From Candidatus Jettenia sp. AMX2 (lineage in GTDB: Bacteria > Planctomycetota > Brocadiia > Brocadiales > Brocadiaceae), in contig CP129469.1 in NCBI GenBank assembly GCA_030583665.1, positions 620,001 to 684,000 of the forward strand: a stretch of 64,000 nucleotides of DNA. Direction: 5' to 3'. Shown one piece after another: positions 22,860 through 42,571 of this stretch (position 1 is its first letter; each line of letters begins with the position of its first letter). Under the pieces are notes generated by a model. That model searched no databases. It saw only the letters and a list, made by a program, of their open reading frames with translations, and had not been told where the DNA came from. The translations under genes and the position numbers were made by a program.

Positions 22860-24386
22860 ATGGATAGGCTATTCAGTATTATTTCCAGTTTACGTTCACC
22901 CAGGATTTCCGTTATAGGCGATTTAATGCTTGATAAATATGTGTGGGGTGAGGTGAGGCGCATCTCACAGGAGGCACCTATCCCTGTTGTTAATGTTACT
23001 TCAGAGGATATAAGGGCCGGTGGTGCTGGAAGTGTTATAAATAATTTACAGACACTGGGTGCACAGGTTTTTGCCTGCGGAGTGATTGGATATGATTCGT
23101 ATGGAAATTCCCTTTTAGATATTTTTAAAACTATGGGGGTTGATACCACTGGGGTTTTAACTGATAAAAGCCGTCATACGACACTCAAAATCCGTTATCT
23201 GGGACATCTGCAAACTGCCGGTAAAGGAGTACAACAACTATTGCGGGTTGATTATGAAAAGACACACCTTCTGTTGCCTGAAATAGAAGTGCAGTTTAAT
23301 GATTATGTAAACGAGACCATACCGTTATGTGATATTGTGCTTGTCTCAGATATGAATAAAGGGCTGCTTACTAACTCTTTTTTACAAACAATTGTGGCCC
23401 TTTGTAAAAGGCATAAGAAAATTATCATTGCAGATCCAAAGCTCGCAAGTGATTATACTTGTTATAGCAGTTTTACTGCGATTACTCCTAACAGAAACGA
23501 GACAGAACTTGCTACAGGAATAAAAATTACAGATACCAATAATCTTATGCAGGCTGCAAAGAAGCTTACTTCTGAGCTTTCTTTGGAGTACTGTATTATT
23601 ACCCTTGACAAAGATGGGATATTTCTATACCAAAAAGATGGGAATGGAAAAATTATCCCAACTACTCCAAAAAGTGTATTTGATGTAACGGGAGCTGGCG
23701 ATATGGTTCTTAGCACATTCGGGATGGTTGTTGGAAGTGGCTATGATTTCGAAGATGCCGCTCAGCTCGCTAATATTGCAGCAGGAATAGAGGTTGGGAA
23801 GATCGGTGCAACACCGGTAAGCAAGGGTGAAATTTTGAATGAACTTATATGTGGGAAGAGCCACTTGCCGAATAAGATTAAAGATATTGATGTGCTTATA
23901 GGCATTTTGAATGAACATAGGAAAAAAAATGATAAAATTGTTTTTACCAATGGTTGTTTTGATATATTGCATATTGGACACATTGAATATCTCAGATTTG
24001 CCAGAAAACAGGGCGATTTACTTGTGGTAGGTTTGAATGCTGATTGTTCAGTACGGGCATTAAAAGGCCCTTTACGTCCTTTTATTTCGCAGGAAGAGCG
24101 GGCAAAGATGCTTGCAGCATTGGAGGATATAAATTATGTGGTGCTTTTTGATGAACAAACACCCATGAATTTAATTAAGGCAATTAAACCCGATGTGCTC
24201 GTGAAGGGAGAAGATTGGAAAGATGCTGGAATAGTGGGTAGTGAATTTGTTGAGTCATATGGAGGAAAGATCGTTTTTGCACCTTTTGTGAAAGGTATTT
24301 CAACTACAGATATTGTAACGAGAATAATTCATAAATGTAATCAGGTGGAAAAAACAAAAGACATGACGAACAGTGCGTTAACATAG
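22860..24386 (+). CDS. hldE: Bifunctional heptose-7-P kinase / heptose-1-P adenylyltransferase
   Basis: This 508-residue cytoplasmic enzyme makes ADP-heptose for the LPS inner core. The N-terminal part (about 1-325) is a ribokinase-type kinase, with GDLMLDKYVWGEVRRISQEAP at the start and the catalytic DVTGAGDMVL. The C-terminal part (about 345-490) is a nucleotidyltransferase with FTNGCFDILHIGHIEYL, including the HIGH motif, and VKGEDW. Length and order match HldE (RfaE). AAAGGAG precedes the ATG. It is followed by gmhA and gmhB, giving the complete pathway from sedoheptulose 7-phosphate except the epimerase. Confidence 0.94.
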   Translation: MDRLFSIISSLRSPRISVIGDLMLDKYVWGEVRRISQEAPIPVVNVTSEDIRAGGAGSVINNLQTLGAQVFACGVIGYDSYGNSLLDIFKTMGVDTTGVLTDKSRHTTLKIRYLGHLQTAGKGVQQLLRVDYEKTHLLLPEIEVQFNDYVNETIPLCDIVLVSDMNKGLLTNSFLQTIVALCKRHKKIIIADPKLASDYTCYSSFTAITPNRNETELATGIKITDTNNLMQAAKKLTSELSLEYCIITLDKDGIFLYQKDGNGKIIPTTPKSVFDVTGAGDMVLSTFGMVVGSGYDFEDAAQLANIAAGIEVGKIGATPVSKGEILNELICGKSHLPNKIKDIDVLIGILNEHRKKNDKIVFTNGCFDILHIGHIEYLRFARKQGDLLVVGLNADCSVRALKGPLRPFISQEERAKMLAALEDINYVVLFDEQTPMNLIKAIKPDVLVKGEDWKDAGIVGSEFVESYGGKIVFAPFVKGISTTDIVTRIIHKCNQVEKTKDMTNSALT

Positions 24387-24418
24387 GTGGCATACAAAGT
24401 TTACAGAGATAAAAAAGA

Positions 24419-24994
24419 ATGATTATGAATGATATAAAACTACACTTGCAAGAAAGTATAGATACGAAAAAGGCGATGTTATTGGCGAACCTTGAAACAA
24501 TTAGAGATATAGCAAACATTCTTATTAAGACACTTAAACAGAATAACTGCATTTACCTTATAGGCAATGGGGGAAGTGCGGCAGATGCACAGCATATTGC
24601 TGGTGAATTAATAGGGAGGTTTAAGCTTGACCGACGCCCTTTTCCTGCAATTGCCTTAACGACAGACAGTTCCGTAATAACTGCAATTGCCAATGATTTT
24701 GGTTATGACTCCTGTTTTTCCAGACAAATCGAGGCCTTGGTTTGCCCGGATGATGCTGTTATTGCATTTAGTACGAGTGGAAATTCCAAGGGGATTGTAA
24801 ATGCTGTTCAGCTTGCGAAAACGTTGGGTGCTGTTACTGTAGGATTTACTGGAAAGGATGGCGGCTTGTTAAAGAACGTTGCTGATATTTGTTTAAAAAT
24901 CCCATCGGACAATACACCAAGGATCCAGGAGTGTCATATTACCGTTGGTCATATTCTATGCTATCTTATTGAAAAAGAGTTTTTTACAATATAA
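24419..24994 (+). CDS. gmhA: Sedoheptulose 7-phosphate isomerase
   Basis: This 191-residue enzyme converts sedoheptulose 7-phosphate to D-glycero-D-manno-heptose 7-phosphate, the first step of ADP-heptose synthesis. The SIS domain shows LIGNGGSAADAQHIAGEL, FKLDRRPFPAIALTTD and STSGNSKG, all conserved in GmhA, and a late ECHITVGHILC segment with the active-site His. It begins 32 bases after hldE. An alternative ATG two codons later cannot be excluded. Confidence 0.94.
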   Translation: MIMNDIKLHLQESIDTKKAMLLANLETIRDIANILIKTLKQNNCIYLIGNGGSAADAQHIAGELIGRFKLDRRPFPAIALTTDSSVITAIANDFGYDSCFSRQIEALVCPDDAVIAFSTSGNSKGIVNAVQLAKTLGAVTVGFTGKDGGLLKNVADICLKIPSDNTPRIQECHITVGHILCYLIEKEFFTI

Positions 24995-25060
24995 ATTCCA
25001 ATGGTGAATAATCAGTAATGAGAAACGCACACTGATAATTCTTCAAAAAAGGGACAAAAA

Positions 25061-25126
25061 TGTCATTGCGAGGCTAAGCCGGAGCAATCTCAAAGAACGG
25101 AATTCTGTATTTTGCCCGGAATGACA
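25061..25126. repeat. Dispersed intergenic repeat, copy B
   Basis: The unit begins TGTCATTGCGAGGC, contains GGAGCAATCTC and ends CCGGAATGACA, so the termini TGTCATT and AATGACA are inverted. It sits in the gap between gmhA and gmhB and matches the copies at 8309 and 59193 in its GTCATTGCGAGG and GCAATCTC blocks. Confidence 0.65.
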
Positions 25127-25143
25127 TCAAGAGGTATTTAAAA

Positions 25144-25689
25144 GTGAAAAGAAAAGCTGTCTTTCTCGATCGGGATGGGACTGTTATTGTTCATGAACCT
25201 TATTTGAGTTCTCCTGATCAATTAAAATTGTTGCCTAATGCAGTTGAAGGGATTCAACTTTTTAAGCAACACGGATACCTTGCTATTATTGTTACCAACC
25301 AATCAGGTATTGCAAGAGGATTTTTCGACGAAGAACGCTTGATTCTTCTCCATAATAAACTTTTAAATATGCTGGCAAGAGAAGGAATTGTTGTTGATGA
25401 CATTTTTTATTGTCCACATTATAGTGAAGGTGTTATTGATCGATATACAATTGACTGTGATTGCCGAAAACCAAAACCAAAAATGCTTTTTGATGCTGCA
25501 AGGAGGCATTGTATTGATTTAAGTCAGTCGGTAATGATTGGAGATTCTGATACAGATATGCTGGCTGGTAAAAACGCCGGATGTTGTTGTGTATTAATAG
25601 GAGATGCTGAAACAAGTCATTGCCATTTTATGCATACGGTTGATTATGTCGTACATGATTTATTAGAAGCTGCCAAGCTGTTTACGTAA
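25144..25689 (+). CDS. gmhB: Heptose-1,7-bisphosphate 7-phosphatase
   Basis: This 181-residue HAD-family phosphatase removes the 7-phosphate of D-glycero-D-manno-heptose 1,7-bisphosphate. The catalytic FLDRDGTV is near residues 7-14, with VTNQSGIARG, the zinc-binding pattern CPHY and DCDCRKPKP, and GDSDTDMLAGKNAG. The start is a GTG at 25144. A dispersed repeat separates it from gmhA, so it may be expressed somewhat independently, although no promoter is obvious. Confidence 0.92.
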   Translation: MKRKAVFLDRDGTVIVHEPYLSSPDQLKLLPNAVEGIQLFKQHGYLAIIVTNQSGIARGFFDEERLILLHNKLLNMLAREGIVVDDIFYCPHYSEGVIDRYTIDCDCRKPKPKMLFDAARRHCIDLSQSVMIGDSDTDMLAGKNAGCCCVLIGDAETSHCHFMHTVDYVVHDLLEAAKLFT

Positions 25690-27258: not shown

Positions 27259-27858
27259 TTATTTCATATTTGAAAGATCAAAATCGAACAGAATTTCTTC
27301 ACCTCCAGGGACTTGGACAGTAAATGTTACGGGTGCATTCAGGTTAACATCTTCCGTTGGAAATTTGAAAACGAGTCTGGCTAAATATGCGGGTGAATCA
27401 GGCCAAAATTCACTTGCATCTGCAATCTCAGGAACAAACTCAAACTCAGGTTGTATAGCTGTCTCATCCTGGTAAAGGACGGCAGAATAGTAAAGTGCAA
27501 AATCATATTCATCACCATATACAGTTGCCGTAAAAGCCAGAGGGTCGCCGTTCTGTAATGTCTCCTGTATTTCCCTGTTTGTAAACTCTCTTCGTTCTAC
27601 GGCGAATTTTCTTGCTTTGTAAGCCAAGGAGTGATAAGGAGTAAAAAGGGTCGCAAAACCTTTACCCTTCCCCAGTGAAACACTCCAATCATTCGAGAAG
27701 AATATAATGTCCAGGTTCTTATTTTTTTGACCATATTCAATGGCCTCTCGTATCTGTGCCGGGGTTAACTTTGAATAAACACCATGGGCAGGTCTTAAAA
27801 GATAAGAGTTTAAAATCAAACCTAAGATAAAAGCGAATAAATACGTCTTTTTAAACAA
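27259..27858 (-). CDS. Hypothetical exported protein
   Basis: The 199-residue protein has a signal peptide (about 1-26, ending RPAHG) and a globular mature part with no recognised motif. Visible segments are LTPAQIREAIEYGQKNK near the start and a beta-rich C-terminal half containing VTFTVQVPGGEEILFDFDLS. It lies 35 bases upstream of the coiled-coil lipoprotein gene, so the two are probably cotranscribed. Function unknown. Confidence 0.7.
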   Translation of the reverse strand: MFKKTYLFAFILGLILNSYLLRPAHGVYSKLTPAQIREAIEYGQKNKNLDIIFFSNDWSVSLGKGKGFATLFTPYHSLAYKARKFAVERREFTNREIQETLQNGDPLAFTATVYGDEYDFALYYSAVLYQDETAIQPEFEFVPEIADASEFWPDSPAYLARLVFKFPTEDVNLNAPVTFTVQVPGGEEILFDFDLSNMK

Positions 27859-29528: not shown

Positions 29529-30893
29529 TTATAACGAGAGTATGATAAGAATCCTTCTGGCAATTTCAAAATAAATAATCAGTCCGGTAGCATCCAGCAA
29601 TGTGGCGATAAATGGCGCAGAGACAAAGGCGGGATCAAGTTTTATAAACCTGAAAAATAAGGGGATTGTTATGCCGACAATATTACCTACGCAAACAACA
29701 GCGAAGAGAGAAATACCTACGGTTAACGCAACGGCAGCATGGTTTAAAGATATCGCTGCAATGGTGAAAGCAATCAGTCCCATAACAAACCCAAGTGCAA
29801 CGCCAACCTTGAATTCTCGTAATATAATTTTCCACCATTCTTTAGATTTGACCTCACCTGTTGCTAATGCTCTTATGATAAGAGTAGAAGACTGTGAGCC
29901 TGTGTTCCCACCGGATCCTGTTAACATTGGGATAAAATAGGTGAGGGCAATTACAGAGCTTAACATGCCAGAATAACTTTTCAAGATAGCCTGTGATATT
30001 GTTGCTGCTATTACAAGGATAACCAGCCAGAATATTCTGTTAGCAACTCGTTTTGAGAATGCTATACGAAAATATTCTTCCTCGGTGGTTTGTATGCCGG
30101 CCATTTTCTGGAAGTCTTCGGTTACCTCTTCCTGTACTACGTCTAAAACGTCATCAACGGTAACAATACCTACTAATCTATCTTCGTTATCCACCACGGG
30201 AACGGCTAAAATATCATATCTTTGCACTACTTGCGCTACTTTTTCCTGGTCGTCAGTTGTACGGACATGGATAACATTTTCATTCATAATATCTTTGATA
30301 AATTGGTTTATATTGGCAAGGATGATATTTTTTAAGGAAGCTACACCGCGAAGTTTTTTGGTTTCGTCAACAATATAGCAAATATAAATGGTCTCGCGGT
30401 TTGGGCCTGTCTTGCGAATATGTTCAAGTGCCTGCTCCACGGTCATATCCATTTCGAGGTCTACATACTCAGGGGTCATTATACGACCTGCAGAATTATG
30501 TGGATAGTTGAGGAGTTCGTTAGCCTCTTTTCGCTCCAGAGGTGGGAGCAATTTTAGTAACTTTTCTACAATATATGCAGGCAATTCATCAAACAGTTGC
30601 GTTCGGTCGTCTGGTTGCATTTGTAATAAAATTTCTCTTGCGTGCTGTTCTGTAAATTGCTTCAGTAGTTCTTCTTGTTCAGTAGGGTCAAACAAAGTAA
30701 AAGTTTCTGAAATTTTAGTTTTATCAAGTAATCTGAAACTCATTACACGTTCTGTAGGAGTGAGTTCCCTGAGGATATCTACAATATCCGCGGGATGGCG
30801 TTCCCGGAGAAAATCCCTCAGACCTTTAAAGTCCTTCATTTCTATGAGTTCTTTAATCTCAGGAAGAAATATTTTTGTCCACTGTATTTCCAT
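29529..30893 (-). CDS. mgtE: Magnesium transporter MgtE
   Basis: This 454-residue protein is a Mg2+ channel or transporter of the MgtE family. The N-terminal superhelical domain (about 20-130, LRDFLRERHPADIVDILREL) and two CBS domains (about 135-260, including MTPEYVDLEMDMTVEQALEHI and MNENVIHVRTTDDQEKVAQVV) gate the pore by sensing cytoplasmic Mg2+. Five membrane helices follow, with the signature LTGSGGNTGSQSSTL. Length and domain order match typical MgtE. It lies 48 bases after the DUF362 gene, so it may be cotranscribed with the lipid cluster upstream. Confidence 0.95.
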   Translation of the reverse strand: MEIQWTKIFLPEIKELIEMKDFKGLRDFLRERHPADIVDILRELTPTERVMSFRLLDKTKISETFTLFDPTEQEELLKQFTEQHAREILLQMQPDDRTQLFDELPAYIVEKLLKLLPPLERKEANELLNYPHNSAGRIMTPEYVDLEMDMTVEQALEHIRKTGPNRETIYICYIVDETKKLRGVASLKNIILANINQFIKDIMNENVIHVRTTDDQEKVAQVVQRYDILAVPVVDNEDRLVGIVTVDDVLDVVQEEVTEDFQKMAGIQTTEEEYFRIAFSKRVANRIFWLVILVIAATISQAILKSYSGMLSSVIALTYFIPMLTGSGGNTGSQSSTLIIRALATGEVKSKEWWKIILREFKVGVALGFVMGLIAFTIAAISLNHAAVALTVGISLFAVVCVGNIVGITIPLFFRFIKLDPAFVSAPFIATLLDATGLIIYFEIARRILIILSL

Positions 30894-30941: not shown

Positions 30942-32132
30942 TTATTCAACTTTCTCAACCCCAAGGGCCTTTGCCATACCCAATAGTGTTCTTCCCAGCA
31001 GGGACCTTTTCATGACAATCGCCTCAAAATCACATACTTCATCGCAACAGAAGCACCCGATACACTTTTTCTTATCTACGATTACTTTGCTATTTTCCTT
31101 TGCCATAGCGCCGGCAGGGCAGTTTCTTATACATTCGTAACATTGTGTGCAGTTTGAATGATTGACCGTTGAAAATGTTGAGCATGTTGTGTCGAACATC
31201 AAGGATAGTAAAAAATTTGGTAAATATTTTCCTGCAAAATCTTGGGCACCGCTTGAAGGTTTTTTAAAATCGGGGATAGATACTTCTGCTAATGGCTCGC
31301 CAACGACACTTATGGAATCTAATTCGCCGATACCTAAGTTGCGTTGATGAGCGAATCGGATAGTGGGTATAGCCATAGGTTCGAATCCGATAATAGTGCT
31401 GGCTACTGCATCAAGAGCCACACTGTCCCGACTGGCAAGAATAAGCCCTACCTTTTTGGGTTGGCCGGCATTGGGACCATTTCCCTCCATACCTACAATA
31501 GCATCCATTATTGTGAGATGGGGGGGGACTGTTTGATAAATATCTACTACTGCTTTGGCAAATACGGTTGGTTTCGGTGCAATTAAATGTATATTTTTTT
31601 TGCCGTTTCCGGGAATTGTTCCCAGCATGTTTTTAATGGCGCCCGTGTATTGGGTTAAACCATGTGTTTTCAATTTTGGTACTGAGATAATAAAATCTGC
31701 CATTCGTAGTGTTTTAGCAATGCGAAATTTATCTACAATTTCATATTCCGTGTTGGAAATATCAAGATACTCATCTTTATCAAAATTAATAATCTTTGCT
31801 CCTGTATCTTCTGCAATTTCGTTGATACGGGTTATCCGAAAGGCATTAAAGGTTGAACTGTTTTTAACACTGCCTGAGGAGTCTCCAATGGAAACATCAC
31901 ATCCAAAGTCTTTTTGAAATATATTGACGAGTGCTCTGACTATTATAGGGTGAGTATTCACTGCCCTATCGGGAGGTTGTGAGGATGAAAGCAGGTTAAT
32001 CTTTAAAAGGACCTTCATGCCGGGCCTAACAAGCTTATCAATACCATCGATTAGTGCCAAAGACTTATGAATAGCATGATAAACTTTTTCCAGTGAGTAC
32101 TCATCACACTTGACAATTGATACGGAAGGCAT
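30942..32132 (-). CDS. DUF362 protein with two 4Fe-4S clusters
   Basis: The 396-residue protein starts with a DUF362 domain (about 1-300; KVLLKINLLSSSQPPDRAVNTHP and VSVPKLKTHGLTQYTGAIKNMLG are typical). The C-terminus carries two ferredoxin motifs, CTQCYECIRNCP and CIGCFCCDEVC, each C-x2-C-x2-C-x3-C. It is cytoplasmic and should transfer electrons to or from an unknown partner. It follows two radical SAM genes, which need reductants, so it may serve them. The reaction of DUF362 is not known to me. Confidence 0.9.
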   Translation of the reverse strand: MPSVSIVKCDEYSLEKVYHAIHKSLALIDGIDKLVRPGMKVLLKINLLSSSQPPDRAVNTHPIIVRALVNIFQKDFGCDVSIGDSSGSVKNSSTFNAFRITRINEIAEDTGAKIINFDKDEYLDISNTEYEIVDKFRIAKTLRMADFIISVPKLKTHGLTQYTGAIKNMLGTIPGNGKKNIHLIAPKPTVFAKAVVDIYQTVPPHLTIMDAIVGMEGNGPNAGQPKKVGLILASRDSVALDAVASTIIGFEPMAIPTIRFAHQRNLGIGELDSISVVGEPLAEVSIPDFKKPSSGAQDFAGKYLPNFLLSLMFDTTCSTFSTVNHSNCTQCYECIRNCPAGAMAKENSKVIVDKKKCIGCFCCDEVCDFEAIVMKRSLLGRTLLGMAKALGVEKVE

Positions 32133-32304
32133 AGTAAAAAATCCTCCTAAGGTTTCAAATCTATAAAAAGCAGTATGGTAGATTATATCAGAAACAGGTA
32201 GAGAAAATACATGAGAGTTTATTACATAAAGAATAAATGATTTTTGTGAAAAAATTTTTCGTTATTGTATGATTACGTAGTTATTCAAAATAAAATGAAA
32301 GTAT

Positions 32305-33768
32305 TTAAAAAAATCTGTTCATAGCATCCGCTCTTTCCATATCCCTTTTGTAAGATTCTTTCTCACTAAGAGTATTTTTCAGAATTGTATTTTTAAGTCG
32401 GATAAACGGCCTCCTCACATACTTCCGGTAGTAATAAGCAATAGGATAATTCTTAATAAAAGCAGGGGTTGTGCAGATATAGTCAGCATATTTTTTATTA
32501 TATTTCCACCTTAAAAACTGGATTTCTTCAGGTTCAAGATAATGAGTTTTAATATTTGCCCAAAAACAATTATAGCGGCTATAGTCATATTTGTTTGTTA
32601 CAAGTCCCATCTTCAGAAGTTCTTCACGCATACCAGTTTTTGGGTATGGTGTTAGTATCTGATCTGCGAAGAAATCGATTTGTGTATCTGCAAAGAATTG
32701 GTAATTCTGTGCAATGTCTTCTTCTTTATCGTGAGGATTTCCGATTATCATACCGCCAACAATCATAATGTTGTGTTCGTGAAGCCGTTTAATTGCCAGC
32801 TTGGTTTTTTGCAGAATGTTTCCTTTTTTCATGAGCCTCAGATTTTCTTCGGAGACATTCTCAATACCGAGGAAAACAATCCGGAAACCTGCTTTGGCCA
32901 TTTTTTCTATAAGCGTGTCCGAAGAGGTAATGCCAACACTGCTAGCCTGGATAATGTACCGAATGTCGTTGTGACCTGCCTCTGTTATCTCGTCACAGAG
33001 AGATTCAAATCTTTTAACATCTAGTGTAAAGTTGTCATCAGAAAATATGATGAAATTTGCTCCATGTTGCTTTGCGTTCGCAATATCAGAAAGTATTCTC
33101 TCTATACTAAATTTCCGGAAGGTTTTTCCATACATTTTATCCATACTGCAAAAATTGCATGGCATAACACATCCACGTGAAGTTTCCACGATATCAATTG
33201 TAAAACCATAATACTTATAACCTTTCCAAATCCGTTTGGAACGGCCAGGAATTTTTATTTTTGTTAAATCTTCCAGAGGACGTTTTGGGTTATGGATAAA
33301 ACGGCCGTTATGACGAAAGGAAACACCTGGAATACCTTCTATAACCCTTTTGCCGTTTATTGCCTCCAGTAATTCATTAAAACAGAGATCCCCTTCACCC
33401 CTAATGATAAAATCAAAAGAATCTGTTTCTTCGTTCTTGCAAATCTCATCGTACATGAGTGTGGCATGATATCCGCCTAAGACGATGGCAATATCTTTGT
33501 TAAGGCTTTTTATCAGGCTCGCTATGTTTCTGGCTGTAGCAAATTGAAAACTCATAGCTGATAAGCCTACAATGTCCGGACGATATCTTCTGACCAATTT
33601 TTTGGTTGTTTCGACAATCTTATCTCTTCGTAAAATAAGGTCTGCAACAAAAACAGTGTGACCTTCTATATTACCTGCAATAGATGATATGGCAAGATTG
33701 GGTGGTTTCCACCGCCTTGCATTAAAATGGGGGGCACAATCAGGCATGGACATTAAAAGTACGTTCAT
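32305..33768 (-). CDS. B12-binding-type radical SAM protein (paralogue 2)
   Basis: This 487-residue enzyme has an N-terminal cobalamin-binding-like domain (about 1-135, with LGGYHATLMYDEI) and a radical SAM core with CVMPCNFC (Cys200, Cys204, Cys207) in ETSRGC. Motifs such as FIIFSDDNFTLDVKRF and GMIIGNPHDKEED fit the BchE/HpnP-like class. I do not see a D-x-H-x-x-G motif, so cobalamin, if bound, would lack the usual lower-axial His. It closely parallels the product of the adjacent upstream gene through its whole length. These enzymes methylate or rearrange unreactive carbons; the substrate is unknown. Confidence 0.9.
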   Translation of the reverse strand: MNVLLMSMPDCAPHFNARRWKPPNLAISSIAGNIEGHTVFVADLILRRDKIVETTKKLVRRYRPDIVGLSAMSFQFATARNIASLIKSLNKDIAIVLGGYHATLMYDEICKNEETDSFDFIIRGEGDLCFNELLEAINGKRVIEGIPGVSFRHNGRFIHNPKRPLEDLTKIKIPGRSKRIWKGYKYYGFTIDIVETSRGCVMPCNFCSMDKMYGKTFRKFSIERILSDIANAKQHGANFIIFSDDNFTLDVKRFESLCDEITEAGHNDIRYIIQASSVGITSSDTLIEKMAKAGFRIVFLGIENVSEENLRLMKKGNILQKTKLAIKRLHEHNIMIVGGMIIGNPHDKEEDIAQNYQFFADTQIDFFADQILTPYPKTGMREELLKMGLVTNKYDYSRYNCFWANIKTHYLEPEEIQFLRWKYNKKYADYICTTPAFIKNYPIAYYYRKYVRRPFIRLKNTILKNTLSEKESYKRDMERADAMNRFF

Positions 33769-33798
33769 AAATTATCCTAAATGGTATATTTTGTGACT

Positions 33799-35280
33799 CT
33801 ATTCTGTCTTATTATCAAAGAAATTATTTGTCTTAAGGAGGTTGTCTATATCCTTTCTGAATATGGCATATTCAGTTTTGCCTAAAGAAGAAAAGAAATT
33901 TTTTATGCGGTAGAACGGTCTGAGAATACATATGCGGAGTAAATTGAGCATTGGGAAATTAGCCTTAAATACAGGGGTTGTTTTAAAAAAAGTAGAATAC
34001 CTACGTTTATATTTCCATCGTAGAAACTGTAAATCCTCTGATGAAAGATATTTAGTTTTAACATTTGCCCAAAAGCCATTATATTTACTATAATCATCAA
34101 GATTCGTAACCAAACCTTCCCTGACCAGCATTTCTCTTATACCTGTTTTTGGGTATGGCGTAATGATCTGTTCACCAAAAAAGTCAATATTAAATTTATC
34201 AAAAAATTCAAAATTTTGTGCAATATCCTCTTCTTTATCATCTGGATGGCCAATAATCATACCTCCCACAATTAAGATATTGTTTTTGTGTAAATAGTCA
34301 ACGGCTCTCTTTGTTTTTTCCAGAATGTTTCCTTTGTTCATCAGCCTGAGGTTTTGTTCTGATACATTTTCAATCCCCAAAAACACAATCCGAATTCCGG
34401 CATGGGCCATCTTTTTGGCTAAGGTTCGGGAGGAAGCTATACCTGTTGTACTTGCCTGAACAATATATCGTAAATCGTTGTGCTTTGCTGCAATAATTGC
34501 ATCACATAATAATTCGAATCTCTTTACATGCAGAGTAATATTATCATCTGCAAATGCTATATATCTTGCGTCGTTCTTTTTGGCATTTGCAAGATCAAGC
34601 ATAATTCTGTCAAAGTGGTATGTCCTGAATGTACGTCCGTACATATGGTTCATACTGCAAAAATTGCAAGTCATTGTGCAACCACGTGAAGTTTCGATCA
34701 TGTCCAGACCTTTTCCGGAAAAAAAGTAACCTTTCCAAATACGTGCATCCCGACGTGGAACCTGTAAGGTGTTCAGGTTTTCTAAAGTCCTCGGTGCATT
34801 ATGGAGAAAAGTACCATTATGGCGATACGACAGGCCGGCAATATCTTCCCATCTCAGTTTTCCCTCAATGGCATCCAACATATCACGAAAAGTACTCTCG
34901 CCTTCCCCGCGAATGATATAATCAAAAGGATTGTTTTCGGAAGAAGATGCAATTTCCTCATACATAAGTGTTGCATGATAACCTCCGATAACAATTTTGA
35001 TATCTTTTTGTAAGCTTTTTATAAAAGTTGCAATTCTTTCAGCCGTTTTAAATTGGAAAGTCATTGCACTGAGTCCAACCACCTCCGGTTGATATTTATC
35101 AATGATCTCTTTTACCGAAGAAAGTAAATTTTCTCTTTTAAGGATTAAATCCGCCAGGAGCACTTCGTGATGTGGGTGAATGTTCCCGGCGATAGAAGAA
35201 ATTCCCAGGTTGGGAGATCTCCATACCTTGGAGGAAAACTGTGGTACTGTGTCTGGCATAGAACATAATAAAATTTTCAT
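33799..35280 (-). CDS. B12-binding-type radical SAM protein (paralogue 1)
   Basis: This 493-residue protein has the same layout as its neighbour at 32305: MPDTVPQFSSKVWRSPNLGI at the N-terminus, a cobalamin-binding-like domain with VIGGYHATLMYEEI, and the radical SAM motif CTMTCNFC (Cys201, Cys205, Cys208). Conserved downstream blocks are YIAFADDNITLHVKRF and GMIIGHPDDKEED. The two genes are a tandem duplication separated by 30 bases and probably act on related substrates or as a heteromer. An acyltransferase gene lies just upstream, pointing to lipids. Confidence 0.9.
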   Translation of the reverse strand: MKILLCSMPDTVPQFSSKVWRSPNLGISSIAGNIHPHHEVLLADLILKRENLLSSVKEIIDKYQPEVVGLSAMTFQFKTAERIATFIKSLQKDIKIVIGGYHATLMYEEIASSSENNPFDYIIRGEGESTFRDMLDAIEGKLRWEDIAGLSYRHNGTFLHNAPRTLENLNTLQVPRRDARIWKGYFFSGKGLDMIETSRGCTMTCNFCSMNHMYGRTFRTYHFDRIMLDLANAKKNDARYIAFADDNITLHVKRFELLCDAIIAAKHNDLRYIVQASTTGIASSRTLAKKMAHAGIRIVFLGIENVSEQNLRLMNKGNILEKTKRAVDYLHKNNILIVGGMIIGHPDDKEEDIAQNFEFFDKFNIDFFGEQIITPYPKTGIREMLVREGLVTNLDDYSKYNGFWANVKTKYLSSEDLQFLRWKYKRRYSTFFKTTPVFKANFPMLNLLRICILRPFYRIKNFFSSLGKTEYAIFRKDIDNLLKTNNFFDNKTE

Positions 35281-35340
35281 TTTGTTAAGTAGAGAGAGTA
35301 TAAAAGTTAATCGTTATGAATATAATGCCAGAATTATATG

Positions 35341-36072
35341 CTATCGCAACAATTCTGATACCTTTCTATGCAGAGTATCTATTATTTTGATAGTGTATTC
35401 TCTGTCATTCCTTGAAGTATCAAAAGACAAGGGATTTCCGAATGATATTTTGATATTTCGCTTTTCTGGATAAGATAGCCATCCATGTTTTGGCATAAAT
35501 GTACTACTACCGGAAATTGCCATAGGGATTACTCTTCTTCCAGACTTTAAAATAATAAGCGAAACCCCTCGCTTAAACGGTCCCAACCTTCCATCTTCGC
35601 TTCTTGTTCCTTCCGGAAATACTACAAGTGATTTTTTTTCTGTAAGTTTTTTAACAGCTGCCAGAAGTGTTACATAGGCCTTTTTGTCGTCATTTCTTTG
35701 TATAGAGATATGTCCCGATGCTTTCATATATGTCCCTAATATGGGAATATGAAAAACGGTATCTTTTGATATAAAACTGATATTAACTGGTATATATGCG
35801 AGGGAAAGTTTGATATCCATCATACTTTGGTGATTTGATATAAAGATAACATGTTCATCCCTGGGGATATTTTCTGTTCCCTGTATCTCAACTCTCATTC
35901 CTATAAGCTTAAATGCAATGCGGCTAAAAAATCTTTCTATTACATTAAATACCTTTTCCTTATTGTTCGAATCTACACTTAAAACTAAAGATGTAAGAGT
36001 TGAGAGAATCCAAAGGAAAATGAATACAGCCCATGAATATATGGTAAATACTATTTGATAAAATTTGTACAT
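35341..36072 (-). CDS. plsC: 1-acylglycerol-3-phosphate acyltransferase (PlsC family)
   Basis: The 243-residue membrane-associated enzyme transfers an acyl chain to lysophosphatidate in phospholipid synthesis. The N-terminal hydrophobic region covers about residues 8-32. The catalytic H-x4-D motif is NHQSMMD, followed by the acyl-binding block VVFPEGTRSEDG and a later VIPMAISGSS motif. Length is normal for PlsC. It leads a leftward cluster with two radical SAM genes 60 bases downstream, which suggests that this copy may handle an unusual acyl chain. Confidence 0.92.
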   Translation of the reverse strand: MYKFYQIVFTIYSWAVFIFLWILSTLTSLVLSVDSNNKEKVFNVIERFFSRIAFKLIGMRVEIQGTENIPRDEHVIFISNHQSMMDIKLSLAYIPVNISFISKDTVFHIPILGTYMKASGHISIQRNDDKKAYVTLLAAVKKLTEKKSLVVFPEGTRSEDGRLGPFKRGVSLIILKSGRRVIPMAISGSSTFMPKHGWLSYPEKRNIKISFGNPLSFDTSRNDREYTIKIIDTLHRKVSELLR

Positions 36073-36712: not shown

Positions 36713-38313
<1,601 letters not shown>

Positions 38314-38477
38314 TTAAACAACTCATACAGCGGTCAGTTCGCCATTCTTGCACGTTTCCGGCTTCTTAATTGATATTCGGCATTCCGGTATGGGATGCTG
38401 CCTTGCTTTATCGGGATTATTAAAAAGGAAGGTGTGAAGGCCCAAAGGATACCAATATTGAAATTTATTGAGTTTTT

Positions 38478-38555
38478 GGGCCTATAGCTCAGTTGGTTCA
38501 GAGCATTCCCCTGATAAGGGAAAGGTCAGTGGTTCGAATCCACTTAGGCCCACCA
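38478..38555 (+). tRNA. tRNA-Ile (anticodon GAT)
   Basis: All four stems can be drawn: acceptor GGGCCTA/TAGGCCC, D stem GCTC/GAGC, anticodon stem TTCCC/GGGAA and T stem AGTGG/CCACT. The anticodon GAT is at 38513-38515 and CCA is encoded. It sits in the 16S-23S spacer. Confidence 0.97.
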
Positions 38556-38584
38556 CTTCCATTCCTTAATATTTGCGGAAAGCA

Positions 38585-38660
38585 GGGGATGTAGCTCAAT
38601 TGGGAGAGCGCTGCCCTTGCAAGGCAGAGGTTGGCGGTTCGACCCCGCTCATCTCCACCA
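38585..38660 (+). tRNA. tRNA-Ala (anticodon TGC)
   Basis: The acceptor GGGGATG/CATCTCC, D stem GCTC/GAGC, anticodon stem CTGCC/GGCAG with TGC in the loop, and T stem GGCGG/CCGCT are all visible, with CCA encoded. It follows tRNA-Ile by 29 bases, the usual order in rRNA spacers. Confidence 0.97.
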
Positions 38661-38685
38661 CTTTGGATATTGAAAAGTAGTGAAA

Positions 38686-38700
38686 TGTTCTTTGAAAACT
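38686..38700 (+). promoter_or_regulatory. boxA-like site before 23S
   Basis: TGTTCTTTGAAAACT resembles the boxA antitermination element found before 23S genes and matches the leader copy at 36582 in its first nine bases. Confidence 0.55.
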
Positions 38701-38751
38701 GAATACTGAATGGGTAGCAATTTGATCCTCTTTGTATAAGATACGAGTAAG

Positions 38752-41750
<2,999 letters not shown>

Positions 41751-41865
41751 TTTTTTCTTACTCGTATCTCATTACAATGGGGTTCTGTTGCTCTCACCCG
41801 TTCAGTAATCAGTCATAGCCCCTTCTCTACTAAAAAGAGAAGCAGTTTGGTATTACAAATGATAG

Positions 41866-41977
41866 TTCCGGTGGGCATAGCAGGAGGGAAACACCCGTTC
41901 CCATTCCGAACACGGTAGTTAAGACTCCTGCGCCGATGGTACTGGCCAAAAGCCGGGAGAGTAGGTCACTGCCGGGC
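41866..41977 (+). rRNA. 5S ribosomal RNA
   Basis: The end helix TCCGGT/GCCGGG, the ATTCCGAACACGG loop and the GCGCCGATGGTACTG region define a complete 5S gene of about 112 nt. It lies 116 bases after the 23S gene, completing a linked rRNA operon. Confidence 0.95.
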
Positions 41978-42025: not shown

Positions 42026-42100
42026 TTTCCTATCCCCCACTTCGGGTATCGGTAGAATTTCTGTTAAAATTACTTGATAATTTTATTTCCAGAGACATTT

Positions 42101-42571
42101 ATGGTTTTGGAATCAGAAGAGGAAATTTTTAAAAAATATTTAGCCCTGAGAAAATTAAAATTCACTCCGGAGAGACAGGCTATATTGAACAGGGTATTCG
42201 CAAATCACAAGCATTTTGAAGTGGATGAATTATTGGTAGATCTTAGAAATAATGACATGAGGATTTCGAAGGCAACTATTTATCGCACACTGGCATTGCT
42301 TGTAAAAAGCGGGCTGCTCAGAGAGGTTATTTTTGGTGAGAGGCATGCGCATTATGAGCATATTTATGGACACGAACATCACGATCATTTGGTATGTAAC
42401 TCATGTGGGAAAATTATTGAGTTCAGTGAACCCAGGATAGAAAAATTACAGAATGAGGTTTGTAAAAATAAAAAATTTAAACCAGAATCTCACCGTTTAC
42501 AAATACAAGGGTTATGTGAAGATTGTATGAATACGGAAGTTTCTGAAAAAACTAAATTATTTAATCATTAA
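42101..42571 (+). CDS. fur: Fur family iron-responsive regulator
   Basis: I start this at the ATG at 42101; the frame is open to a TTG at 42074 without a ribosome site. The 156-residue regulator has a winged helix with recognition helix ISKATIYRTLALLVKSG, then the metal-binding segment HAHYEHIYGHEHHDHLVCNSCGK and a second CEDCM near the C-terminus, giving the two C-x2-C pairs of the structural zinc site. Members can be Fur, Zur or PerR, but four Fur-type boxes at 281-19274 make iron control the best fit. It sits just downstream of the rRNA terminator and upstream of rpmB. Confidence 0.88.
   Translation: MVLESEEEIFKKYLALRKLKFTPERQAILNRVFANHKHFEVDELLVDLRNNDMRISKATIYRTLALLVKSGLLREVIFGERHAHYEHIYGHEHHDHLVCNSCGKIIEFSEPRIEKLQNEVCKNKKFKPESHRLQIQGLCEDCMNTEVSEKTKLFNH

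What the first reader, a model, noticed from the sequence alone, without database searches (positions are those of the whole stretch)
30942..36072. PlsC, two tandem B12-type radical SAM enzymes and a DUF362 ferredoxin: candidate lipid-modification cluster
Tandem radical SAM paralogues directly after a lysophosphatidate acyltransferase, then a two-cluster ferredoxin protein, suggest modification of acyl chains with strong reductant. If the host is an anammox bacterium, ladderane lipids, whose biosynthesis is not solved to my knowledge, are one possible product. The radical SAM proteins seem to lack the D-x-H-x-x-G cobalamin motif.
Basis: inference. Interest (0 to 1): 0.65.

Follow-up and report, generated by a model that had tools for sequence, protein, structure and literature searches.

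The report
Anammox radical enzyme pair, not ladderane-essential
Two related radical enzymes and a ferredoxin-like partner form an old gene group of ammonium-oxidising (anammox) bacteria that probably alters some lipid or other greasy molecule, but it is missing from a well-studied ladderane-making species, so it cannot be the long-sought ladderane pathway.

Summary
The genes are real and correctly placed: PlsC, two tandem B12-domain radical SAM paralogues (rSAM1, rSAM2) and a DUF362/2x[4Fe-4S] protein, on the minus strand of an anammox genome close to Ca. Loosdrechtia. The ladderane reading fails: both radical SAM genes are absent from 9 of 38 good-quality Brocadiales genomes, including the complete genome of the ladderane producer Kuenenia stuttgartiensis (hydrazine synthase identical to PDB 5c2v), where the site is empty between conserved neighbours. 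In the largest Scalindua-family genus a decayed stub of rSAM2 remains. By contrast a radical SAM gene in a kuste3604-3608-like fatty-acid cluster elsewhere in this genome has a match in 38 of 38 (clear orthologue in 36). PlsC is a core gene adjacent to rSAM1 in only two genera. The conserved unit is rSAM1-rSAM2-DUF362-MgtE. The sister clade (16 Desulfobacterota proteins) has a ketosynthase nearby in 13 and a PlsC-type acyltransferase directly upstream in 11. Best guess: a class-B cobalamin radical SAM pair acting on an acyl chain or lipid-linked polyketide, dispensable for ladderanes, possibly fed by the DUF362 ferredoxin. Tetrapyrrole modification (closest named family BchE) is the main rival.

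The parts
35341..36072 (-). PlsC-type 1-acylglycerol-3-phosphate acyltransferase (243 aa); core Brocadiales gene, accidental or lineage-specific neighbour
   Evidence: PF01553 105 bits; orthologue in nearly all 59 relatives, next to rSAM1 only in genera g1 and g5
33799..35280 (-). rSAM1: B12-binding-domain radical SAM enzyme (493 aa)
   Evidence: PF02310 + PF04055; invariant cluster cysteines; AF2 pLDDT 88.8, Foldseek hits AprD4, TsrM, OxsB, MgmA
32305..33768 (-). rSAM2: paralogue of rSAM1 (487 aa), separate orthologous clade
   Evidence: PF02310 + PF04055; rSAM2 clade 100/99 in tree
30942..32132 (-). DUF362 protein with C-terminal 2x[4Fe-4S] ferredoxin domain (396 aa); conserved downstream partner of rSAM2, but also kept where the rSAMs are lost
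   Evidence: PF04015 199 bits; two CxxCxxCxxxC motifs; match in 53 of 59 relatives at E<=1e-40
29529..30893 (-). MgtE magnesium transporter, conserved next gene after DUF362
   Evidence: TIGR00400 471.6 bits; DUF362-MgtE linkage in families f1 and f2, one gene apart in f4

Best explanation
rSAM1 and rSAM2 are an ancient anammox pair of class-B (cobalamin-domain) radical SAM enzymes. Shown by sequence: both keep the [4Fe-4S]/SAM motif and the B12-binding domain without the histidine ligand motif; they arose by duplication before the anammox families split; their probable ancestral operon is rSAM1-rSAM2-DUF362-MgtE. Inferred: they act in sequence or as a heteromer on an acyl chain or lipid-linked polyketide, making a 5'-deoxyadenosyl radical and using base-off cobalamin for methylation or C-C bond/ring formation; the two-cluster ferredoxin domain of DUF362 supplies low-potential electrons. 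The product is a dispensable lipid trait, lost repeatedly, and not the ladderane core; the PlsC next door is not part of the system.
For: Domains and motifs. Fold of cobalamin radical SAM enzymes. Tree: rSAM1, rSAM2 and third copies form one anammox clade whose sister is 16 Desulfobacterota proteins; 13 of these 16 have a ketosynthase in the locus and 11 sit directly behind a PlsC-type acyltransferase, in clusters with FakA/B-like kinase, AMP ligase, ACP, lipid A-type acyltransferase, glycosyltransferase and CrtD-like oxidoreductase. Adjacent operon rSAM1-rSAM2-DUF362-MgtE in family f2. Two-cluster [Fe7S8] ferredoxins drive the related BchE in vitro (PMC13142503). Only in Brocadiales among 392 Planctomycetota genomes. 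Dispensable: absent from 9 of 38 good genomes, clean empty site in K. stuttgartiensis, decayed rSAM2 stub in genus g14.
Against: No anammox copy of rSAM1/rSAM2 has a ketosynthase or ACP in the flanks read, so the lipid context is borrowed from a sister clade about 45% identical. The closest named family is BchE, a tetrapyrrole enzyme. Third copies in family f2 lie near an AhbD-like radical SAM and a BchU-like methyltransferase. DUF362 persists without the rSAMs, and f5 genomes have rSAMs without DUF362, so the electron-donor role is unproven. Cobalamin binding was not tested; the top fold match is AprD4.
Confidence: 0.42

Rival explanations
1. Tetrapyrrole modification: the pair is a BchE-like cyclase or alkyl-modifying enzyme acting on a haem or porphyrin, as BchE acts on Mg-protoporphyrin monomethyl ester.
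For: BchE is the best NCBIfam hit of both (168.7 and 175.6 bits, next best 116-123), over nearly the full length. Third copies in family f2 lie beside an AhbD-like haem synthase homologue (452.6 bits) and a methyltransferase whose best hit is BchU (68.5 bits).
Against: BchE cut-off is 481 bits, far from met. The Desulfobacterota sister clade also scores BchE best (184.5 bits) although it sits in acyl/ketosynthase clusters, so BchE similarity does not fix the substrate. No tetrapyrrole gene flanks rSAM1/rSAM2 themselves.
Confidence: 0.2
2. Core ladderane biosynthesis: the pair closes the cyclobutane rings.
For: Restricted to Brocadiales within Planctomycetota; radical SAM/B12 chemistry has been proposed for ladderanes (PMC2649909; PMC13142503).
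Against: Both genes are missing from the complete K. stuttgartiensis genome (best residual hit 28% identity), identified by HzsA 100% identical to PDB 5c2v, and from all 11 genomes of genus g14, with a pseudogene stub left. Ladderanes occur in K. stuttgartiensis (PMC2649909). A different radical SAM, in a FabZ-KS-KS-desaturase cluster, has a match in 38 of 38 good genomes, a clear orthologue in 36.
Confidence: 0.03
3. Tailoring of ladderane or other membrane lipids in a subset of anammox (for example mid-chain methylation or an extra desaturation), so the lipid mixture but not the ladder depends on it.
For: Patchy, repeatedly lost distribution on an ancestral gene set; PlsC adjacency in two genera; acyl context of the sister clade.
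Against: No lipid difference that tracks the genes was found in the papers available; it is a special case of the best explanation rather than separately supported.
Confidence: 0.15
4. Peptide or other small-molecule modification unrelated to lipids and tetrapyrroles (RiPP-type, phosphonate-type or natural product).
For: ApyD (RiPP) and PhpK-type P-methyltransferase models are among the next-best matches.
Against: No precursor-peptide-like or natural-product gene is conserved beside the pair; weak scores.
Confidence: 0.2

Closest known systems
BchE, anaerobic Mg-protoporphyrin IX monomethyl ester cyclase (TIGR02026)
   Same: B12 domain + radical SAM, similar length, best-scoring named family over residues 23-479; BchE runs on two-cluster ferredoxins
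   Different: 168.7/175.6 bits against a cut-off of 481; no bacteriochlorophyll pathway context
Radical SAM enzymes of the Rattray ladderane candidate clusters (kuste2803, kuste3342/3343, kuste3608)
   Same: Anammox radical SAM enzymes; relatives found in this genome too, at G000:1,445,960 and 1,526,028
   Different: These sit with ketosynthases, FabZ and a phytoene-desaturase homologue and track all good anammox genomes; the window pair does not and is absent from K. stuttgartiensis
Desulfobacterota KS-PlsC-rSAM clusters (aryl-polyene-like)
   Same: Sister clade of the pair in the tree; same domain layout; PlsC-type acyltransferase next door
   Different: Single copy, about 45% identical, inside ACP/KS/acyltransferase clusters; no DUF362 partner seen
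HpnJ / HpnR hopanoid radical SAM enzymes
   Same: B12 radical SAM enzymes acting on lipids
   Different: 104-110 bits against cut-offs of 578 and 650; no hopanoid genes adjacent
Lactate racemase LarA superfamily (DUF2088, clan CL0471)
   Same: DUF362 is in the same Pfam clan (PMC11770544); the weak model finds LarA folds first
   Different: DUF362 here carries a two-cluster ferredoxin domain; Ni-pincer site not tested

Membership tests
Radical SAM superfamily | CxxxCxxC cluster motif and Radical_SAM domain | tested here: met
   PF04055 74 bits over cut-off 29.5; C201/C205/C208 invariant in 37 sequences
Cobalamin-dependent radical SAM (class B) | N-terminal B12-binding Rossmann domain | tested here: met
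   PF02310 62-64 bits over cut-off 32.1; fold hits TsrM, OxsB, MgmA, TokK, CysS
Cobalamin-dependent radical SAM (class B) | Actually binds cobalamin | not testable with these tools
   SxM...GG kept, DxHxxG absent; many such enzymes bind cobalamin base-off without a His ligand (PMC13331322); top fold hit AprD4 leaves it open
BchE (TIGR02026) | Score above curated cut-off 481.35 | tested here: not met
   168.7 and 175.6 bits
rSAM_ladder_B12 (TIGR04072) | Score above curated cut-off 360 | tested here: not met
   91.3 and 84.7 bits; the best protein in this genome reaches 326 bits elsewhere
HpnJ / HpnR | Score above curated cut-offs 577.6 / 650 | tested here: not met
   104-110 bits
Ladderane core biosynthesis genes | Present in every ladderane producer | tested here: not met
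   Absent from K. stuttgartiensis G010 and 8 other good genomes
Ladderane core biosynthesis genes | Linked to FASII genes in this genome | tested here: not met
   No ketosynthase hit within 400 kb of the window locus; KS genes at 0.12, 0.21, 1.45, 1.53 and 3.19 Mb
Four-gene cluster as a conserved unit | PlsC adjacent to rSAM1 in relatives | tested here: not met
   Only G000, G001, G005, G012, G017
DUF362 ferredoxin proteins | DUF362 domain with two [4Fe-4S] motifs | tested here: met
   PF04015 199 bits; eight cysteines invariant in 17 sequences
PlsC / AGPAT | TIGR00530 cut-off 102.95 | tested here: inconclusive
   99.9 bits to TIGR00530, 105.1 bits to PF01553

The most novel reading that the evidence does not exclude
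An anammox-wide ancestral, still unnamed cobalamin radical SAM pair with a dedicated DUF362 ferredoxin that makes an undescribed lipid modification, kept in Brocadia, Jettenia and Loosdrechtia and lost in Kuenenia stuttgartiensis and most of the Scalindua family.
Probability: 0.3. Interest if true: 0.6.

Novelty: new member of a known kind. Interest (0 to 1): 0.36.

Why it matters
It removes a tempting but wrong ladderane candidate and points instead to radical SAM genes that do track all anammox genomes tested (the kuste3608-type gene). It also defines a natural experiment: near relatives with and without the pair, where one lipidome comparison could reveal what the pair makes.

Tried and rejected
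Ladderane core role: rejected by absence from K. stuttgartiensis and the g14 genus. PlsC as system member: rejected, core gene far away in most relatives. BchE, HpnJ, HpnR, rSAM_ladder_B12 membership: below cut-offs. Substrate hints from other anammox neighbours (FBPase-TPR, DapB, rhomboid, MutS, CHAT/TPR proteins) were not conserved and led nowhere. Literature searches for a mid-chain-methyl fatty acid that tracks the genes gave nothing usable. The DUF362 model was poor (pLDDT 65) and only hints at a LarA-type fold. One region request and one alignment request failed on coordinates; one search failed because a genome handle was needed; two papers were not held.

Full report
OBSERVATION. All four genes are intact ORFs at the stated coordinates on the minus strand. 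Gaps are 60 bp (PlsC to rSAM1), 30 bp (rSAM1 to rSAM2), 172 bp (rSAM2 to DUF362) and 48 bp (DUF362 to MgtE). Domain calls are strong. The two radical SAM proteins carry a B12-binding domain and a radical SAM domain; in an alignment of 37 relatives the three cluster cysteines are invariant, the SxM and GG parts of the B12 domain are kept, and DxHxxG is absent. Absence of DxHxxG is not evidence against cobalamin, since many cobalamin radical SAM enzymes bind it base-off without a histidine (PMC13331322). The predicted fold (pLDDT 88.8) matches AprD4, TsrM, OxsB, MgmA, CysS and TokK.

HOST. The window is part of a 3.46 Mb single-contig genome. Two copies of the hydrazine synthase alpha domain and 80% identity of rSAM1 to Ca. 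Loosdrechtia aerotolerans make it an anammox bacterium of or near that genus. A complete rRNA operon with two tRNAs starts 641 bp upstream of PlsC on the other strand.

THE CONSERVED UNIT IS NOT THE FOUR-GENE SET. The PlsC orthologue is found in nearly all 59 relatives, but lies next to rSAM1 only in genera g1 (window and its congener) and g5, which holds Jettenia. It is an ordinary core gene. A DUF362 match is in 53 of 59 genomes at E<=1e-40 (in a few of them only the 33-38% paralogue); the orthologue is followed by MgtE, directly in families f1 and f2 and one gene away in f4. The tight order rSAM1-rSAM2-DUF362-MgtE occurs in family f2 (L060, L065), so this is probably ancestral; in several Brocadiaceae the two rSAM genes have been pulled apart by inserted genes, and even the congener G001 has them on different contigs. 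f5 genomes have rSAM genes without a DUF362 orthologue.

LADDERANE TEST. Counting by hand, 29 of 38 Brocadiales genomes that are at least 90% complete and at most 5% contaminated carry rSAM1 and/or rSAM2, and 9 carry neither (G008, G010, G035, G038, G041, G052, G053, G054, G058); eight of the nine have hydrazine synthase alpha. G010 is a 4.4 Mb single contig whose HzsA is identical over 782 residues to PDB 5c2v, the hydrazine synthase solved from Kuenenia stuttgartiensis (species from my own knowledge). Its best remaining hit is 28% identical. K. stuttgartiensis is a ladderane producer and the organism in which the 34 candidate genes were defined and later expressed in E. coli (PMC2649909, PMC4790861); a gene absent from it cannot be among them. 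In K. stuttgartiensis the M50 peptidase gene and DUF362 are adjacent, whereas its congener G015 has rSAM2 between the same two genes. In genus g14 of the Scalindua family (named Scalindua genomes are in the same family; that g14 is Scalindua proper is inference) the nitroreductase gene and DUF362 flank a decayed start of rSAM2: 34-39 of 53 bases match the intact gene of G048 in five genomes, against at most 27-30 in 300 shuffles each. So these lineages had the gene and lost it. By contrast, the radical SAM gene of the FabZ-KS-KS-desaturase-rSAM cluster at G000:1.526 Mb, which has the gene order of kuste3604-3608, has a match at E<=1e-90 in 57 of 59 and in 38 of 38 good genomes; 36 of the 38 have a clear orthologue (70-90% identity), while G040 and G058 show only the 54-59% relatives. 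A second cluster at 1.445 Mb has the order of kuste2802-2805. Those, not the window genes, behave like ladderane candidates.

DISTRIBUTION AND DESCENT. In 392 Planctomycetota genomes the family is found only in Brocadiales. In Desulfobacterota 18 of 395 genomes have a match. In the tree, rSAM1 (77/85 support), rSAM2 (100/99) and third copies of family f2 (100/100) form one anammox clade (100/96); its sister is a clade of 16 Desulfobacterota proteins (100/100). In 13 of those 16 loci a ketosynthase is present and in 11 a PlsC-type acyltransferase lies directly upstream. With five to ten ketosynthase genes per genome, a chance presence within 18 kb would be expected in roughly 5% of loci (my estimate). 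The Pfam content of one such cluster is FakA/B-like kinase, AMP ligase, glycosyltransferase 2, lipid A-type acyltransferase, ACP, ketosynthase, PlsC-type acyltransferase, the BchE-like rSAM, a SPASM radical SAM and a CrtD-like oxidoreductase.

MECHANISM. Shown: domain architecture, motifs, duplication, linkage to DUF362, repeated loss. Inferred: substrate is an acyl chain or lipid-linked polyketide, by the sister-clade context; chemistry is methylation or C-C bond/ring formation, as in known members; DUF362's ferredoxin domain donates electrons, by analogy with BchE, for which [Fe7S8] ferredoxins support turnover (PMC13142503). I give this 0.42. The tetrapyrrole rival rests on BchE as best family hit and on AhbD-like and BchU-like neighbours of the third copies, but the acyl-context sister clade also scores BchE best, so that hit does not decide the substrate.

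VERDICT. New member of a known enzyme kind; moderate interest.

Noticed in passing
G000:C1:1,526,025-1,532,040 (L073:8026-14041): FabZ-KS-KS-phytoene-desaturase-like-rSAM cluster in the order of kuste3604-3608; its rSAM has a match in 38 of 38 good Brocadiales genomes. This is the better ladderane candidate.
   Followed up: partly
G000:C1:1,445,492-1,450,081 (L072:5493-10082): AcpS-like-rSAM-KS-KS cluster in the order of kuste2802-2805.
   Followed up: partly
L140, L141, L144, L148, L149 (upstream of DUF362 in genus g14): Decayed 5' stub of rSAM2 left between a nitroreductase gene and DUF362: evidence for secondary gene loss in the Scalindua family.
   Followed up: yes
window 27259-27858 (-): 199-aa secreted-looking protein without Pfam match, conserved beside the DUF362-MgtE-TPR block and also beside third-copy rSAM genes of family f2 (L077; similar by eye in L076).
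   Followed up: partly
L075, L076, L077: Third copies of the rSAM family in f2 lie with a Methyltransf_2 O-methyltransferase (weak BchU hit), two of them also with an AhbD-like haem synthase homologue.
   Followed up: partly
window 36714-41977 (+): Complete 16S-tRNA-tRNA-23S-5S operon directly divergent from PlsC, followed by a FUR-family regulator (42074-42571).
   Followed up: no
window 22860-25689 (+): Genes that read as HldE, GmhA and GmhB (ADP-heptose synthesis), conserved beside the MgtE block in the congener G001.
   Followed up: no
G000:C1:3,242,546-3,247,291 (-): Three consecutive long radical SAM genes (open frames 692, 809 and 433 aa).
   Followed up: no
window 30942-32132 (-): DUF362 model, though poor, finds LarA (nickel-pincer) folds first; whether this ferredoxin-fused DUF362 holds a metal cofactor is open.
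   Followed up: partly
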